Of a stretch of DNA of 64,000 bases, positions 27,142 through 64,000 are shown piece after piece (within the stretch, counting starts at the first letter, position 1; the number at the start of each line of letters is the position of its first letter). Both the position numbers and the translations under genes were made by a program. The notes beneath the pieces are model-generated. The model was not told the DNA's origin. It worked only from the letters and a program-made list of their open reading frames with translations, and ran no database searches. Origin of the DNA: Fibrobacter succinogenes (lineage in GTDB: Bacteria > Fibrobacterota > Fibrobacteria > Fibrobacterales > Fibrobacteraceae); NCBI GenBank assembly GCA_902762795.1, contig CACWPM010000011.1, positions 1-64,000 of the forward strand, given 5' to 3'.

Positions 27142-27688
27142 TGCAGATTAATTTAATTAGTCGTTAGTTATTGGTCAATAGTTATTCTCTAAGTTCTGCA
27201 AGCTAAAATTTCTCTCGTCTGTAGTCCAAAGGGCGTTCTCTCGCCTCTCGTCTAACTTTACTGGATCCTTCCCCTACGGTGTCAGGATGACGTCCCTAAA
27301 TTCTAAACTCTTCCCACTGCCAACTAAGTTCTGCCAACAGCCAACTAATCTCTCCTACTTCCTATTTCTCTCTACATTTTAACTTCCTACTTGTACTTTC
27401 GCTCCGCTCAAGTACCAAATGCTGGTCTCGGTCATGCCAAAACAAATTTTGTCGCGACTCTCGACCTACGCATTTGTCCTACTTCCTAATTCTCCCTACA
27501 TTTTCCCTTCTCTCGTCTCTCGTCTCTCGTCTCAAGTCTTCCTACTTGTTATATTTATGGTCCCCAGGCTTTGCTTTGCAGGCGGGCGGTACTTTCCGTC
27601 AAGAAACATAGGGAGCTCGGATGCGATCCATACTTTTGGACCGGTCTTGGGGATATATCAAGTTTTGCTTTACCCTTTAGGAGTTTTA
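27142..27688. other. Intergenic region rich in low-complexity repeats, upstream of the RNase E/G gene
   Basis: Nothing here looks coding. It holds pyrimidine-rich low-complexity sequence, a (CTCGTCT)n run at about 27510-27535, and a 28-bp direct repeat with three mismatches (TCCTACTTCCTA... at about 27354 and 27477). It also has a GGATCC...GTCAGGATGACG block at about 27262-27293 resembling one at 60038-60058, and TTAGT-type repeats near 27160. The last ~130 bases (AGGAG before the ATG) are the likely leader of the downstream gene. An open frame extending upstream to 27419 passes through these repeats and is rejected. Confidence 0.6.
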
Positions 27689-58354: not shown

Positions 58355-58762
58355 CTATTTCGTTAAATATTTTTTCAATTCCGAAAACGAATGCGAATAA
58401 AAAAGCACAAACCGGCCGCGAATAAAAATAAACCCAAACCACTTTCCTAATATAGTATTGATTTTCTTAATTCTGAACTTTCCAGGTTTCAACGTCACGG
58501 AATTACCAAGAAAAAAAGTAATTCGTGCGGATTCATCTTCGAATAATTCGACTTTCCTTGGAAACAGGTGAGCTATAGCAAACAAAATATAAAGACTTGC
58601 AACAGCCATATAAATCCAAAAAATGACATTGTCCTTGTAAACGTCCGAGTTCATAACTCTATTTATATACATGCCCATAATAACAGCATAAATAACAATA
58701 CCTTCTATTGACCCCCAAAGCCAAAGTTTGCTTTTCGCTTCATATACTTTATTTTCACTCAT
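58355..58762 (-). CDS. Small membrane protein B2 with C-terminal cytoplasmic domain
   Basis: 135 residues: two hydrophobic helices (IEGIVIYAVIMGMYINRV and VIFWIYMAVASLYILFAIAH), then ~65 residues with an alternating pattern (VELFEDESARITFFLGNSVT) suggesting a PH-like or beta-rich fold. Its C-terminal part matches the decayed copy at 58755-59095. Function unknown. Confidence 0.65.
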   Translation of the reverse strand: MSENKVYEAKSKLWLWGSIEGIVIYAVIMGMYINRVMNSDVYKDNVIFWIYMAVASLYILFAIAHLFPRKVELFEDESARITFFLGNSVTLKPGKFRIKKINTILGKWFGFIFIRGRFVLFYSHSFSELKKYLTK

Positions 58763-59095
58763 ACCGTATGTTCCTATTTTTTACTAAATATTTCTCCAGT
58801 TCCGGAAACAGATCCGCCGAGAAAAACAGCATTCGACCACGAATCCACAAGGCCGCGCCCCATTTCCCATTTGGCTTCCATTTTTTTGTCGCACCAAATT
58901 AAATTTTTCTCGAGAAACCGTCATGCTGTTTCCTAGCAAAAAAGTAATGCGCATCGTTTCATCGTCCAAAATCGCAACCTTTTTAGGAATAGCATGAAGT
59001 GCTTCAAAGCAGAAATAAAGGAGGAATACTTCTCTAAACACCCACATAAAATTGATAGAGTCGTAAGCAAAGACGATTTGTGTGTATAAACGCAA
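58755..59095 (-). pseudogene. Decayed or frameshifted copy of small membrane protein B
   Basis: The open frame (58784-59095, TTG start) matches B2 from KKVAILDDETMRITFLLGNS but then turns into unrelated sequence after EKFNLVRQK. At the A7 run of the coding strand (T7 at 58881-58887) a -1 shift restores a sensible end (GKWGAALWIRGRMLFF and LFPELEKYLVKN) and a stop overlapping the start of B2. The first transmembrane helix of B2 is missing here. So the copy is damaged at both ends, or the A-run is one base short in the assembly and the start is misread. Confidence 0.65.
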
Positions 59096-60091: not shown

Positions 60092-61414
60092 TTATTTCAC
60101 GAACGCGTTGTAAATCGCCTTGATAGCCTTTTCGGTATCGGCTTCGTCAACACCGGTGATGATGTTGATCTGGGAAGAACCCTGGTCGATGATGCGGACG
60201 TTCACCTTGCTTTCTGCGAGAGCCGTAAAGAGCGTCGCGGCAACGCCGATCTTGTTCGTCATGCCGTGACCCACGGTAGCGATAAGAGCGATGCCCGGGA
60301 AAATCTTGATACGGTCGGGGCGCATCTGCTGCGTGATGTCTTCGAGAACAACGTCCTGCACGGCATCGAGAGCCTTGGAATCCACGACAATGCTCATGGA
60401 GTCGATAGCGCTCGGGCAGAGTTCGTAGGAGAGGCCTTCGCTTTCGAGAACAGCGAGCACGCGGCGGCCAAAGCCAACTTCCTTGTTCATCATGGACTTT
60501 TCGATGTAGATCATCGAGAAGCCCTTGCGGCCTGCAACACCCGTAATCGGGAGCTTTGCGCTTTCCGGAGTCGGGCCAATGATGGTGCCGGCATCTTCCG
60601 GACGGTTCGTGTTGCGGATGTTGATCGGAATCTTCTTCGCGCGGCACGGAGCGATGGATTCGTCGTGGAGAACGCTTGCGCCGGAGTAGGCGAGTTCGCG
60701 GATTTCGCGGTAGCTCACGTATTCGATCGGCAGCGGGCTTTCGACGATGCGCGGGTCTGCCATGAGCATGCCCGAAACGTCCGTCCAGTTTTCGTACTTG
60801 GCAGCGTCAATGCCGTTTGCAAGGATTGCGCCCGTAATGTCGGAACCGCCACGGCTGAAGGTTTTGACTTCGCCACGGAGGTTAGAGCCATAGAAGCCCG
60901 GCAATACGTACAACTGATTTTCGTCGCCGAGAGTCTTTGCAATTTCTTCGTAAGTCTTCGGAGCAATGCGGTACTTGTCATCGAAAGTGATGAGCGGGTA
61001 GCTATCGACGAAGTTTGCGCCGAGATACTTTGCCATGAGGCGTGCGCAGAGGAATTCGCCACGGCTCACGAGGAAGTCCGTGCTCACGGATTCCGGATGG
61101 TTCTTGAGCTTGTCTTCGAGACTGTCGAGGTCTTCGGTGAGTTTGTCTTCAAGGCCCAAATCCTTGCAAATTTCGTCATAGCGCTGACGAATCAAGTTCC
61201 ACGGGGTCGAAAAGTCGAGGCCCTTGGAGGCGAGATCATAAGTACTGTAGAGGAGATCGGTAAGCTTGGTTTCTTTCGGATTACGCTTGCCGGGGGCGGA
61301 AACGACGATGACCTTGCGGTTCTTGTCGGATTCAACGATGGCCTTGATTTTCTTGAACTGGCCGGCATCGGCGACAGAGCTGCCGCCGAACTTGCATACG
61401 ATTCTTTGACTCAT
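60092..61414 (-). CDS. Aspartate kinase
   Basis: 440 residues from ATG 61414, preceded by AAAGGAAAAA; a longer frame upstream is not needed. The kinase domain has KFGGSSVADAGQFKKI (residues 7-22), VVSAPGKR, STDFLVSRGEFLCARLMA, KTFSRGGSDITGAI and SYREIRELAYSGASVLH. Two C-terminal ACT domains follow (KGFSMIYIEKSMMN and ALIATVGHGMTN). The enzyme phosphorylates aspartate, the first step toward lysine, threonine and methionine. The ACT domains indicate feedback control by amino acids. It is a monofunctional enzyme with no fused homoserine dehydrogenase. Confidence 0.94.
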   Translation of the reverse strand: MSQRIVCKFGGSSVADAGQFKKIKAIVESDKNRKVIVVSAPGKRNPKETKLTDLLYSTYDLASKGLDFSTPWNLIRQRYDEICKDLGLEDKLTEDLDSLEDKLKNHPESVSTDFLVSRGEFLCARLMAKYLGANFVDSYPLITFDDKYRIAPKTYEEIAKTLGDENQLYVLPGFYGSNLRGEVKTFSRGGSDITGAILANGIDAAKYENWTDVSGMLMADPRIVESPLPIEYVSYREIRELAYSGASVLHDESIAPCRAKKIPINIRNTNRPEDAGTIIGPTPESAKLPITGVAGRKGFSMIYIEKSMMNKEVGFGRRVLAVLESEGLSYELCPSAIDSMSIVVDSKALDAVQDVVLEDITQQMRPDRIKIFPGIALIATVGHGMTNKIGVAATLFTALAESKVNVRIIDQGSSQINIITGVDEADTEKAIKAIYNAFVK

Positions 61415-62096
61415 TTTTTCCTTTCGGGCCACCAAACCTCTCAGCTTCGAGCGCAACCGCTTTCCTCGCGATTGTCGTGCCCAAGCCTACCCATCTGGCC
61501 AGCCACTTTTAGGCGCCCTCTAAAAATTCATTCTCAAAAATTTGGCTGCGACACATCGTGCAGGTTGCATATTCATGCCAACTATACGGCTCAGTCATGC
61601 CCATGCAAGCATGGGCGCGACGTTCACCTTTTATAGTTGTCGTCACTCAAAGTGGTAAAGACTTCCAGTATTCACCACTTTTCGTTCCTGCCTGCACTCG
61701 GTCTCGCTCAAATTTTCAAATCAAAGCAATTTTTATCGGTCGCCTTGGTTTATGATTTGTCTATGTCTGCGACGGCACTTTACCGCCGCGCGCGGACAAA
61801 TGTAGCAAAAGTGTGCAAGGCGAGCAAGGCGAAAAAACTTGTTTTTTCATCTTTGAGCCGTAGCCACGGACGCCGAAGGCGTCAAAAGGCGAGAGTCGCG
61901 TCAAGACATTTATGTCTTGACATGACCGAGCCAAGCTACACGCACTCCGAAGGAGTGCCATGTAGCAATTGAAAAGAATCGTGGCAAGGTTTCAATTTAA
62001 GCAAATGGCGGCTAGCGGCAAAATTACACTCCAACAAACGCAATTTTCTATATTCATTTACATAAAACTAAAATCATCATAGGAGAAGGAGAAATC
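61415..62096. other. Long intergenic region with hairpins and repeats
   Basis: 682 bases with no convincing gene. The segment 61860-61966 contains three hairpins like those after pta. The frame 61637-61972 looks like chance coding through these repeats and is rejected. The last ~25 bases hold GGAGAAGGAG, the ribosome-binding site for the next gene. Confidence 0.6.
61869..61966. repeat. Array of three small hairpins, related to 39053-39129
   Basis: GACGCC-GAA-GGCGTC (61869-61883), GTCAAGACAT-TT-ATGTCTTGAC (61900-61921, a perfect 10-bp inverted repeat), and GCACTCC-GAA-GGAGTGC inside outer arms GCTACA/TGTAGC (about 61935-61966). The first hairpin and flank are nearly identical to 39080-39105. 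Confidence 0.75.
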
Positions 62097-63095
62097 ATAA
62101 GAAACTATTTACTCGCCGTCGCGGCATCCGCATTCCTCATCACCGCCTGCGGCGAAGACAGCACAACAAACTCCATATCCACAGCGGGTTCCCTTTACGT
62201 CGATGAATCACGGCACTTAATTGTGATGACACCTTACGAAACGAGCAGAGACCTATGCGTCCTAGAAAATAACAGCTTAGTCTGGAAAACCATAAAGCGA
62301 ACTCCCGATTCCGATTCTTCCAAATACGAATTCATTGGCGACACTCTCGTCCTTTACGAAATTAACGAAGGAGAACCCGCTTCCTATGGAGTTGTATTCA
62401 TAGGTGGCACCGCAGGCAACATCTACGGAACATGGACCCATACCGGATGCAACCGCGAAAGCCAAACAGGCGAAACAGAATGCTATACAAATACTCGCTA
62501 TGGCACTCGAACCTACAGTTACTCTTCAGGGAAAGTAACATACAAAGTTGAATACCACATGGATCTTTATGTTGCCGACGAACAGGCAAGAGGCTATATG
62601 GAATCTGGCTTTATGGCTGATTTGTATAGTTACTTGACCAGCAGAAGCTATCTAAAAGATGTTATCAGCATTACGGCCAACGAAGATCAAGCAACCAGAG
62701 TCTCGAGAAGCATCGAAGAAAACGGCGTTCAAATTATCGAAAGCACAAAGACAAACCAAACCTTTAAGATTGGCGACAAGACATACACCGTGACCGTCAA
62801 GAAGGCAGAAACGACCCTCCACTACACAGGCCGCGCCAACAGGGAAGCCGTTGTCGAAGTAACTGACGGCACCACGACCTGCAGCAGTTACGCCATCTAC
62901 AAGACGGTGGACCAGAATCTCTGCAAAACAGAAAACCTCCAATATTTCACTACCAGTTTCAATGAAGACGACGATGGCCACAAGTACTTATCGGTATTAC
63001 ATTACGAGAACACCGACCACGAACAGTTCTTGGAATGCCTTAGCAGCATTGCATTACCCATCACGAATGTCCCTGCCCCAAGCCCTGTTAAATAG
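62097..63095 (+). CDS. Lipoprotein with apparent ATA start codon
   Basis: 332 residues if initiated at ATA 62097. The frame opens just after the strong ribosome-binding sequence GGAGAAGGAG (62082-62091), and its first residues form a perfect lipoprotein signal: RNYLLAVAASAFLITACGED. There is no ATG, GTG or TTG in frame before the signal; the first such codon (GTG 62223) would remove it. So either AUA (or AUC 62094) starts translation, or an original ATG has mutated. The mature protein, with GGTAGNIYGTWTHTGC and repeated threonine-rich strands, is probably an envelope beta-rich protein of unknown function. Confidence 0.7.
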   Translation: MRNYLLAVAASAFLITACGEDSTTNSISTAGSLYVDESRHLIVMTPYETSRDLCVLENNSLVWKTIKRTPDSDSSKYEFIGDTLVLYEINEGEPASYGVVFIGGTAGNIYGTWTHTGCNRESQTGETECYTNTRYGTRTYSYSSGKVTYKVEYHMDLYVADEQARGYMESGFMADLYSYLTSRSYLKDVISITANEDQATRVSRSIEENGVQIIESTKTNQTFKIGDKTYTVTVKKAETTLHYTGRANREAVVEVTDGTTTCSSYAIYKTVDQNLCKTENLQYFTTSFNEDDDGHKYLSVLHYENTDHEQFLECLSSIALPITNVPAPSPVK

Positions 63096-63227: not shown

Positions 63228-64000
63228 ATGAAAAAACACGAAAAATTGATGCTTATCGCCGCCCAATCCAACATTCCAGTTCTTTTGCAAGGGGAATCCG
63301 GAGTCGGCAAGGAAATCGCAGCTAGATTCATCCACAAGAACAGCCCACGGAGCAGGGGACCGTTCATCGCGCTCAACTGCGGCGCCATCGCACGGAACCT
63401 CGCCGAAAGCCTTTTGGAAGGCTCCAAAAAGGGGGCTTACACCGGAGCATCCAACGATCACAAAGGCATCGTACAAGCAGCAAATGGCGGTACGCTCTTT
63501 CTCGACGAAATCGGGGAAATGCCATTCGACATGCAAAGCAAGCTTTTGCGCATATTGCAGGAACATTCCGTGCTCCCGCTCGGGGCCACGCAAAATGAAC
63601 CCGTCGATTTCAGACTCGTGTGCGCAACAAACCGAGATTTGCAAACCGAGATCAAGAACGGAAATTTCCGCAAGGACTTGTACTTCAGATTAAGCGCATT
63701 CCCCATTGTCATCCCGCCTCTCCGAAAGAGGACTGACTTTGCAGAAATCGCGACAACTGTATGGAATGACATAACCGAAAAAACTTTTGCAGAACAGTTC
63801 CCGCTTCAAGACTGGGAAATCAAAGCACTATCCAATTACAAGTGGCCCGGCAATATCAGGCAATTAAAAAACGTACTTCAACGCTACGCGCTTTTGAAAG
63901 AGCACGACATCTCGCTCGAGGAAATTCTCTCCGAAGAATTCTCAAGAAAAGCCATTAGGGACACTGACGAATGCTTCATGTACCAGGTCCGCGCATCGGC
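63228..64000 (+). CDS. Sigma-54-dependent AAA+ transcriptional activator, 3' partial
   Basis: Open from ATG 63228 to the window end (about 257 residues so far). The sequence enters the AAA+ domain at once: Walker A VLLQGESGVGKEIA, the sigma-54 contact loop KGAYTGASNDHKG (GAYTGA, not GAFTGA), Walker B GGTLFLDEIGEMPFD, RFRL-type ATNRDL, FRKDLYFRL (arginine fingers) and WPGNIRQLKNVL. No receiver, GAF or PAS domain precedes the AAA+ domain, as in PspF-type activators. The C-terminal helix-turn-helix is beyond the window. It uses ATP to remodel sigma-54 RNA polymerase. A small spacer with AGGGT sits upstream of the start. Confidence 0.9.
   Translation, partial: MKKHEKLMLIAAQSNIPVLLQGESGVGKEIAARFIHKNSPRSRGPFIALNCGAIARNLAESLLEGSKKGAYTGASNDHKGIVQAANGGTLFLDEIGEMPFDMQSKLLRILQEHSVLPLGATQNEPVDFRLVCATNRDLQTEIKNGNFRKDLYFRLSAFPIVIPPLRKRTDFAEIATTVWNDITEKTFAEQFPLQDWEIKALSNYKWPGNIRQLKNVLQRYALLKEHDISLEEILSEEFSRKAIRDTDECFMYQVRAS

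What the first reader, a model, noticed from the sequence alone, without database searches (positions are those of the whole stretch)
62082..62110. Lipoprotein gene with apparent AUA initiation codon
A strong ribosome-binding sequence, five-base spacer and perfect lipoprotein signal surround ATA at 62097, with no normal start codon in frame before the signal. AUA (or AUC) starts are very rare and normally poor, so the gene may be down-regulated on purpose or recently silenced by ATG to ATA.
Basis: seen in the sequence. Interest (0 to 1): 0.5.

Follow-up and report, generated by a model that had tools for sequence, protein, structure and literature searches.

The report
Fibrobacter lipoprotein gene, start-codon mutation
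In one Fibrobacter genome an otherwise intact lipoprotein gene begins with ATA where its six closest relatives have ATG, which is best read as a single-letter change (or, less likely, a base error in the draft assembly) that should lower how much protein is made.

Summary
At 62097 an intact 332-codon lipoprotein frame starts with ATA, five bases after AGGAG (62087-62091), with no ATG, GTG or TTG in frame before its lipobox Cys (62148). The window is from a Fibrobacter draft genome (G000). The six closest orthologues found (63-68% identical) lie at the same locus, between lysC and a sigma-54-type regulator gene, and all six have ATG at exactly this codon. Promoter-like CTATATTC, AGGAG, signal peptide and reading frame are kept. 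Pairwise dN/dS (0.21-0.27) is close to that among the orthologues (0.16-0.25). In 844 kb (21%) of the genome no convincing second lipoprotein gene without a normal start was found, so AUA is no evident habit. Best explanation: one recent G-to-A change in the start codon, leaving weak initiation at AUA. A base error cannot be excluded, because no second genome of the species was found. Deliberate down-regulation lacks support: no relative read shares the ATA; the one hint is a second AGGAG six bases upstream, absent from the orthologues. Bacterial ATG-to-ATA alleles and AUA starts are documented (E. coli rpoS; S. aureus infC, ccpN, citZ). Interest is low.

The parts
62048..62055 (+). CTATATTC, promoter -10-like element, invariant in window and six orthologues
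   Evidence: Invariant columns in A1. CTATATT lies within 120 bases upstream of 31 of 558 ORFs picked by length, 5.4 expected. Against: the sigma-70 consensus scan found no site in this region (0 found, 2.4 expected in shuffles).
62081..62085 (+). Upstream second AGGAG, not present in the six orthologues
   Evidence: Sequence; orthologue leaders.
62087..62091 (+). AGGAG, Shine-Dalgarno sequence, 5 bases before ATA (6 before ATG in the orthologues)
62097..62099 (+). ATA at the start-codon position (ATG in 6 of 6 orthologues)
62097..63095 (+). Intact lipoprotein reading frame, 332 codons plus stop; lipobox LITA-C with Cys at 62148-62150
60092..61414 (-). lysC (aspartate kinase), divergently placed neighbour, present at the six orthologous loci
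   Evidence: Pfam AA_kinase and ACT; synteny. The end given is the ATG of MSQRIV, worked out; the listed frame extends to a TTG at 61456.
63228..64000 (+). Sigma-54-type regulator gene (AAA+ domain at the N-terminus), downstream neighbour, runs past the window end (314 aa in all)
   Evidence: Pfam Sigma54_activat; full frame in L078; synteny.

Best explanation
A G-to-A substitution has turned the ATG start codon of an ordinary, conserved Fibrobacter lipoprotein gene into ATA. Shown: ATA stands where the six closest orthologues have ATG, and the promoter-like element, AGGAG, signal peptide and frame are intact. Inferred: the change is recent; the initiator tRNA still starts at AUA with N-terminal fMet at low efficiency, helped by the AGGAG five bases upstream, so a correct but scarce lipoprotein is made.
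For: Six of six orthologues at the lysC to sigma-54-regulator locus have ATG at this codon and the same 17-codon distance to the Cys. Frame open over 332 codons, no stop. Pairwise dN/dS of window against the six 0.21-0.27, among the six 0.16-0.25; Tajima relative-rate chi2 at most 1.33. If the gene were fully neutral, an intact frame would have a chance of 0.07 after 2% and 0.0015 after 5% neutral change, with an assumed 0.1 indel per substitution (0.54 and 0.21 if only stops are counted), so the start change is likely young or the gene is still used. CTATATTC is kept and CTATATT is enriched upstream of ORFs. Precedents, passages read: E. [quoted passage not shown] S. aureus AUA-start reporters of ccpN and citZ at about 10% of AUG, up to 30% for ccpN in rich medium, and ribosome density at the AUA start of infC (PMC13009471).
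Against: The base rests on one draft genome; no second genome of the species was found, the best long DNA match being 78% identical (one search warns that very near records may be left out). A frame-broken paralogous gene lies about 3 kb away at 58784-59095, which fits either gene decay or local sequence errors. The window protein differs at 13 of 112 columns invariant in the others, against 0-5 of 99-104 for each orthologue; it is also the most distant of the seven, which could explain this, but some relaxation is possible. The predicted RNA fold pairs both AGGAG motifs with downstream bases, though it is no more stable than shuffles (z -0.15). Translation from this AUA was not measured.
Confidence: 0.6

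Rival explanations
1. The ATA is a base error, or a minor-strain base in the consensus, of the draft assembly; the cells carry ATG.
For: G000 is a draft of 89 contigs, 96.74% complete and 2.76% contaminated. The six orthologues all have ATG. A frame-broken paralogue lies about 3 kb away.
Against: The lipoprotein frame shows no other break, and lysC next to it is intact and 98.6-99.7% identical to the six relatives over the parts held. Single-base consensus errors in short-read assemblies are rare (general knowledge; the sequencing method here is unknown).
Confidence: 0.15
2. A true null: AUA initiates too poorly to matter and the gene is a very young pseudogene.
For: The E. coli figure of up to 1% of ATG for ATA, as cited in PMC12864459 (Hecht et al. 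2017; that paper itself is not held). A family member is frame-broken in another species (L046). 13 of 112 otherwise invariant columns changed.
Against: Frame, promoter-like element and AGGAG are intact; rpoS ATG>ATA kept at least about a fifth of its protein, and S. aureus AUA reporters gave about 10-30%.
Confidence: 0.15
3. AUA is kept by selection as a weak start, as argued for S. aureus ccpN, perhaps offset by the doubled AGGAG.
For: AGGAGAAGGAG instead of the single AGGAG of the orthologues; intact frame and low dN/dS.
Against: No relative read shares ATA; no convincing second such lipoprotein gene in 844 kb. A doubled AGGAG may be chance.
Confidence: 0.07
4. Translation starts elsewhere: ATC 62094, or GTG 62223, which would drop the signal peptide and make a cytoplasmic protein.
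For: GTG 62223 is the first normal start in frame.
Against: ATC or ATT before the start is found in orthologues that have ATG; a start at 62223 loses the conserved signal peptide and lipobox.
Confidence: 0.03

Closest known systems
E. [quoted passage not shown]
   Same: Single-base ATG to ATA start change in an otherwise intact gene; protein lowered (up to 5-fold), not abolished.
   Different: Arose in laboratory culture and was measured; here there is only sequence from a draft Fibrobacter genome, and the gene is an uncharacterised lipoprotein.
S. aureus AUA starts of citZ (NCTC 8325 lineage), ccpN and infC (PMC13009471, passages read)
   Same: AUA start; citZ is a lineage-specific case. The paper is about extended Shine-Dalgarno motifs.
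   Different: ccpN's AUA is described as conserved and limiting expression; here no relative read shares it.
Group A Streptococcus emm4 ralp3 with ATA start (PMC11238559, one passage read)
   Same: ATA in place of the ATG of another lineage, suggested to give little protein.
   Different: A different gene, not a lipoprotein.

Membership tests
Bacterial lipoprotein (Sec signal, signal peptidase II) | Short charged N-region, hydrophobic core, lipobox ending in Cys | tested here: met
   I/M-R-N-Y then LLAVAASAFLITA-C, read; passes the pattern filter. No signal-peptide predictor was available; the motif is recalled knowledge.
Fibrobacter lysC-locus lipoprotein family | Homology to the genus family over most of the length | tested here: met
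   42 of 80 genus genomes, the window's own included, match at E<=1e-30; six others at 63-68% identity.
Fibrobacter lysC-locus lipoprotein family | Position between lysC and the sigma-54-type regulator gene | tested here: met
   Both neighbours found at all six orthologous loci.
Fibrobacter lysC-locus lipoprotein family | ATG start at the homologous codon (a habit of the family, not a defining test) | tested here: not met
   ATA in the window; ATG in 6 of 6 orthologues; an ATG at a suitable distance in 43 of 45 family genes read, the other two being this gene and a frame-broken one (which keeps its ATG in another frame).
Conserved weak AUA-start genes (ccpN or infC type) | AUA kept across related species | tested here: not met
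   No ATA at the start of any relative read; not all family members were fetched.
Conserved weak AUA-start genes (ccpN or infC type) | Measured reduced initiation at AUA | not testable with these tools
   Needs a reporter assay or ribosome profiling.

The most novel reading that the evidence does not exclude
The ATA is fixed in this Fibrobacter species and, together with a doubled AGGAG that the orthologues lack, forms a deliberately weak, IF3-sensitive start that keeps a lipoprotein at a low, condition-dependent level.
Probability: 0.06. Interest if true: 0.5.

Novelty: new member of a known kind. Interest (0 to 1): 0.2.

Why it matters
Modest. If real, it is a natural start-codon down-mutation in a clean context (same promoter-like element, signal and frame as ATG orthologues) that would let AUA initiation be measured in Fibrobacter. 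It also shows how annotation that allows only ATG, GTG and TTG would miss or shorten such a gene and lose its signal peptide: the first start in the ORF list is GTG 62223.

Tried and rejected
Genome-wide AUA use: not seen in the sample. In 444 kb, five frames had AGGAG 4-9 bases before ATA with no earlier start; three are ATA directly followed by ATG, one (window 50737, minus) looks spurious by eye, one is this gene. In 844 kb, after GGAG and with no normal start from the frame opening to 15 codons on, ATA headed 8 frames (my count of the listed rows) against 20 for TTC, 19 for CTT and 30 for ATG; of the eight only this one carries a lipoprotein signal. L082 looked like a second start-less lipoprotein but has an ATG 41 codons before its Cys.

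infC as a control for non-AUG starts: its frame was found but the start could not be fixed (TTG or ATG); no ATA stands out by eye. Left open.

Translational coupling to an upstream ORF (ATG 62005, 25 codons, stop 62080-62082; translated): thought to be chance, since it spans the promoter-like element; not checked systematically in the orthologues. RNA fold around the start: minimum energy -9.4 kcal/mol pairs both AGGAG motifs with downstream bases, but no more stable than shuffles, z -0.15. Promoter and terminator consensus scan: no promoter site and no terminator at the gene.

Protein function: no family reaches its curated cut-off in Pfam or NCBIfam. The structure prediction from four sequences was poor (mean pLDDT 49.5), so no fold search was made. 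Hecht et al. 2017 is not held and is cited only through PMC12864459. The one literature search that named Fibrobacter (9 papers, 8 listed) shows no title or abstract opening on AUA starts; this is a listing only, not proof of absence. Searches were general searches, listings only, except the four papers opened (passages). PMC10158994 was read in passages on IF3 and third-base pairing and not used for a number.

Full report
WHAT IS THERE. The window is the first 64,000 bases of contig C11 (65,491 bases) of a Fibrobacter draft genome, G000, 3.93 Mb in 89 contigs; genus by homology to named records and the Fibrobacter-1 RNA. At 62087-62091 stands AGGAG, then AAATC, then ATA at 62097, followed by a typical lipoprotein signal ending LITA-C with the Cys at 62148. 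The frame opens at 62016 and contains no ATG, GTG or TTG until GTG 62223, which lies beyond the Cys. It ends at 63095 after 332 codons with no internal stop.

RELATIVES. Of 80 genus genomes, which include the window's own, 42 have a match at E<=1e-30. Six others are close: G001, G027, G082, G083, G085 and G097, at 63-68% amino-acid identity (64-68%, 63-66% in the alignment). At all six loci the gene lies between lysC (98.6-99.7% identical over the parts held) and a sigma-54-type regulator gene (79-83%), as in the window. All six have ATG exactly where the window has ATA, 17 codons before the Cys, preceded by AGGAGAAAATC (five) or AGGAGAAAATT (one). In a wider reading of L001-L049 (tblastn E<=1e-20), 46 distinct frame ends were scored. 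42 had an ATG in reach of a lipobox Cys. One more, L049, was missed by the Cys pattern and has an ATG. Two belong to one frame-broken gene (L046), whose ATG is in another frame. The last is the window gene. The ATG test shows presence at a suitable distance, not a proven start. Not every hit was fetched, so not all family members were read.

STATE OF THE GENE. Pairwise dN/dS (Nei-Gojobori) of window against the six is 0.21-0.27 with dS 0.85-1.14; among the six it is 0.16-0.25. Tajima relative-rate counts with G067 as outgroup are not unequal (chi2 0.0 to 1.33). Against this, the window changes 13 of 112 columns invariant in the others, while each orthologue changes 0-5 of 99-104; the window is the most distant of the seven, so this is expected in part. 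CTATATTC at 62048-62055 is invariant in the seven, and CTATATT is found within 120 bases upstream of 31 of 558 ORFs picked by length against 5.4 expected; the generic sigma-70 scan found no site. Under full neutrality, with kappa 4 and an assumed 0.1 indel per substitution, the chance of an unbroken frame is 0.27 after 1%, 0.07 after 2% and 0.0015 after 5% change; counting stops alone it is 0.74, 0.54 and 0.21. So the change is likely young, or the gene is still used.

IS IT A HABIT OF THE GENOME? In 844 kb in 40 stretches (21% of G000, window included) a lipoprotein-signal filter accepted 62 frames: 50 with ATG, 9 with only GTG or TTG, 3 with none. The three are this gene, L082 (which has an ATG just outside the range) and L072, which looks like an antisense frame (by eye). 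The filter also passes some false frames. An AGGAG-anchored scan of 444 kb gave five ATA frames without an earlier start, three of them ATA followed at once by ATG. No convincing second case was seen; four fifths of the genome were not scanned this way.

MECHANISM. The simplest account is one G-to-A transition in the start codon. From the literature, AUA starts work weakly: up to 5-fold loss in E. coli rpoS ATG>ATA, where the same paper cites up to 1% of ATG efficiency from Hecht et al. (PMC12864459); about 10%, and up to 30% for ccpN, in S. aureus reporters (PMC13009471); suggested to be low for GAS emm4 ralp3 (PMC11238559). The AGGAG at five bases favours some initiation. The predicted RNA fold pairs the AGGAG motifs with downstream bases but is no more stable than shuffles (z -0.15), so it says little either way. 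That initiation happens here is inference.

WHAT CANNOT BE SETTLED. No other genome of this species was found; the best long DNA match was 78% identical, the held set has one genome a species, and warns that very near records may be left out. A base error or mixed-strain consensus is therefore possible. A tandem paralogue about 3 kb away is frame-broken, which can be read either way. Deliberate weak initiation has one hint, a second AGGAG at 62081-62085 that the six orthologues lack, and no further support.

VERDICT. Observation confirmed; the mutation reading is supported; purposeful regulation is not. It is an ordinary kind of event with documented bacterial precedents.

Noticed in passing
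window 58784-59095 (-): Short ORF resembling part of the neighbouring ORF 58355-58762 (-), with the rest of the similarity continuing in another frame: a frame-broken tandem paralogue, or a local sequence error.
   Followed up: partly
L046 (genome G101), about 1420-1570: A homologue of the lipoprotein keeps an ATG start, but the frame is lost within the signal-peptide region; a second family member broken in another species.
   Followed up: partly
window 62081-62091: Doubled AGGAG (AGGAGAAGGAG) before the ATA; the six orthologues have a single AGGAG.
   Followed up: partly
window lipoprotein, alignment columns 155 and 166 (0-based): Two cysteines shared with the more distant G067 protein but absent from all six closer orthologues; perhaps an ancestral disulphide lost in them.
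   Followed up: no
window 27552-27652 (+): Fibrobacter-1 RNA (RF02983), 107 bits.
   Followed up: no
G008, G013, G018, G020, G031, G034, G035 and G087: Two or more copies of this lipoprotein family lie close together on one contig in these species.
   Followed up: no
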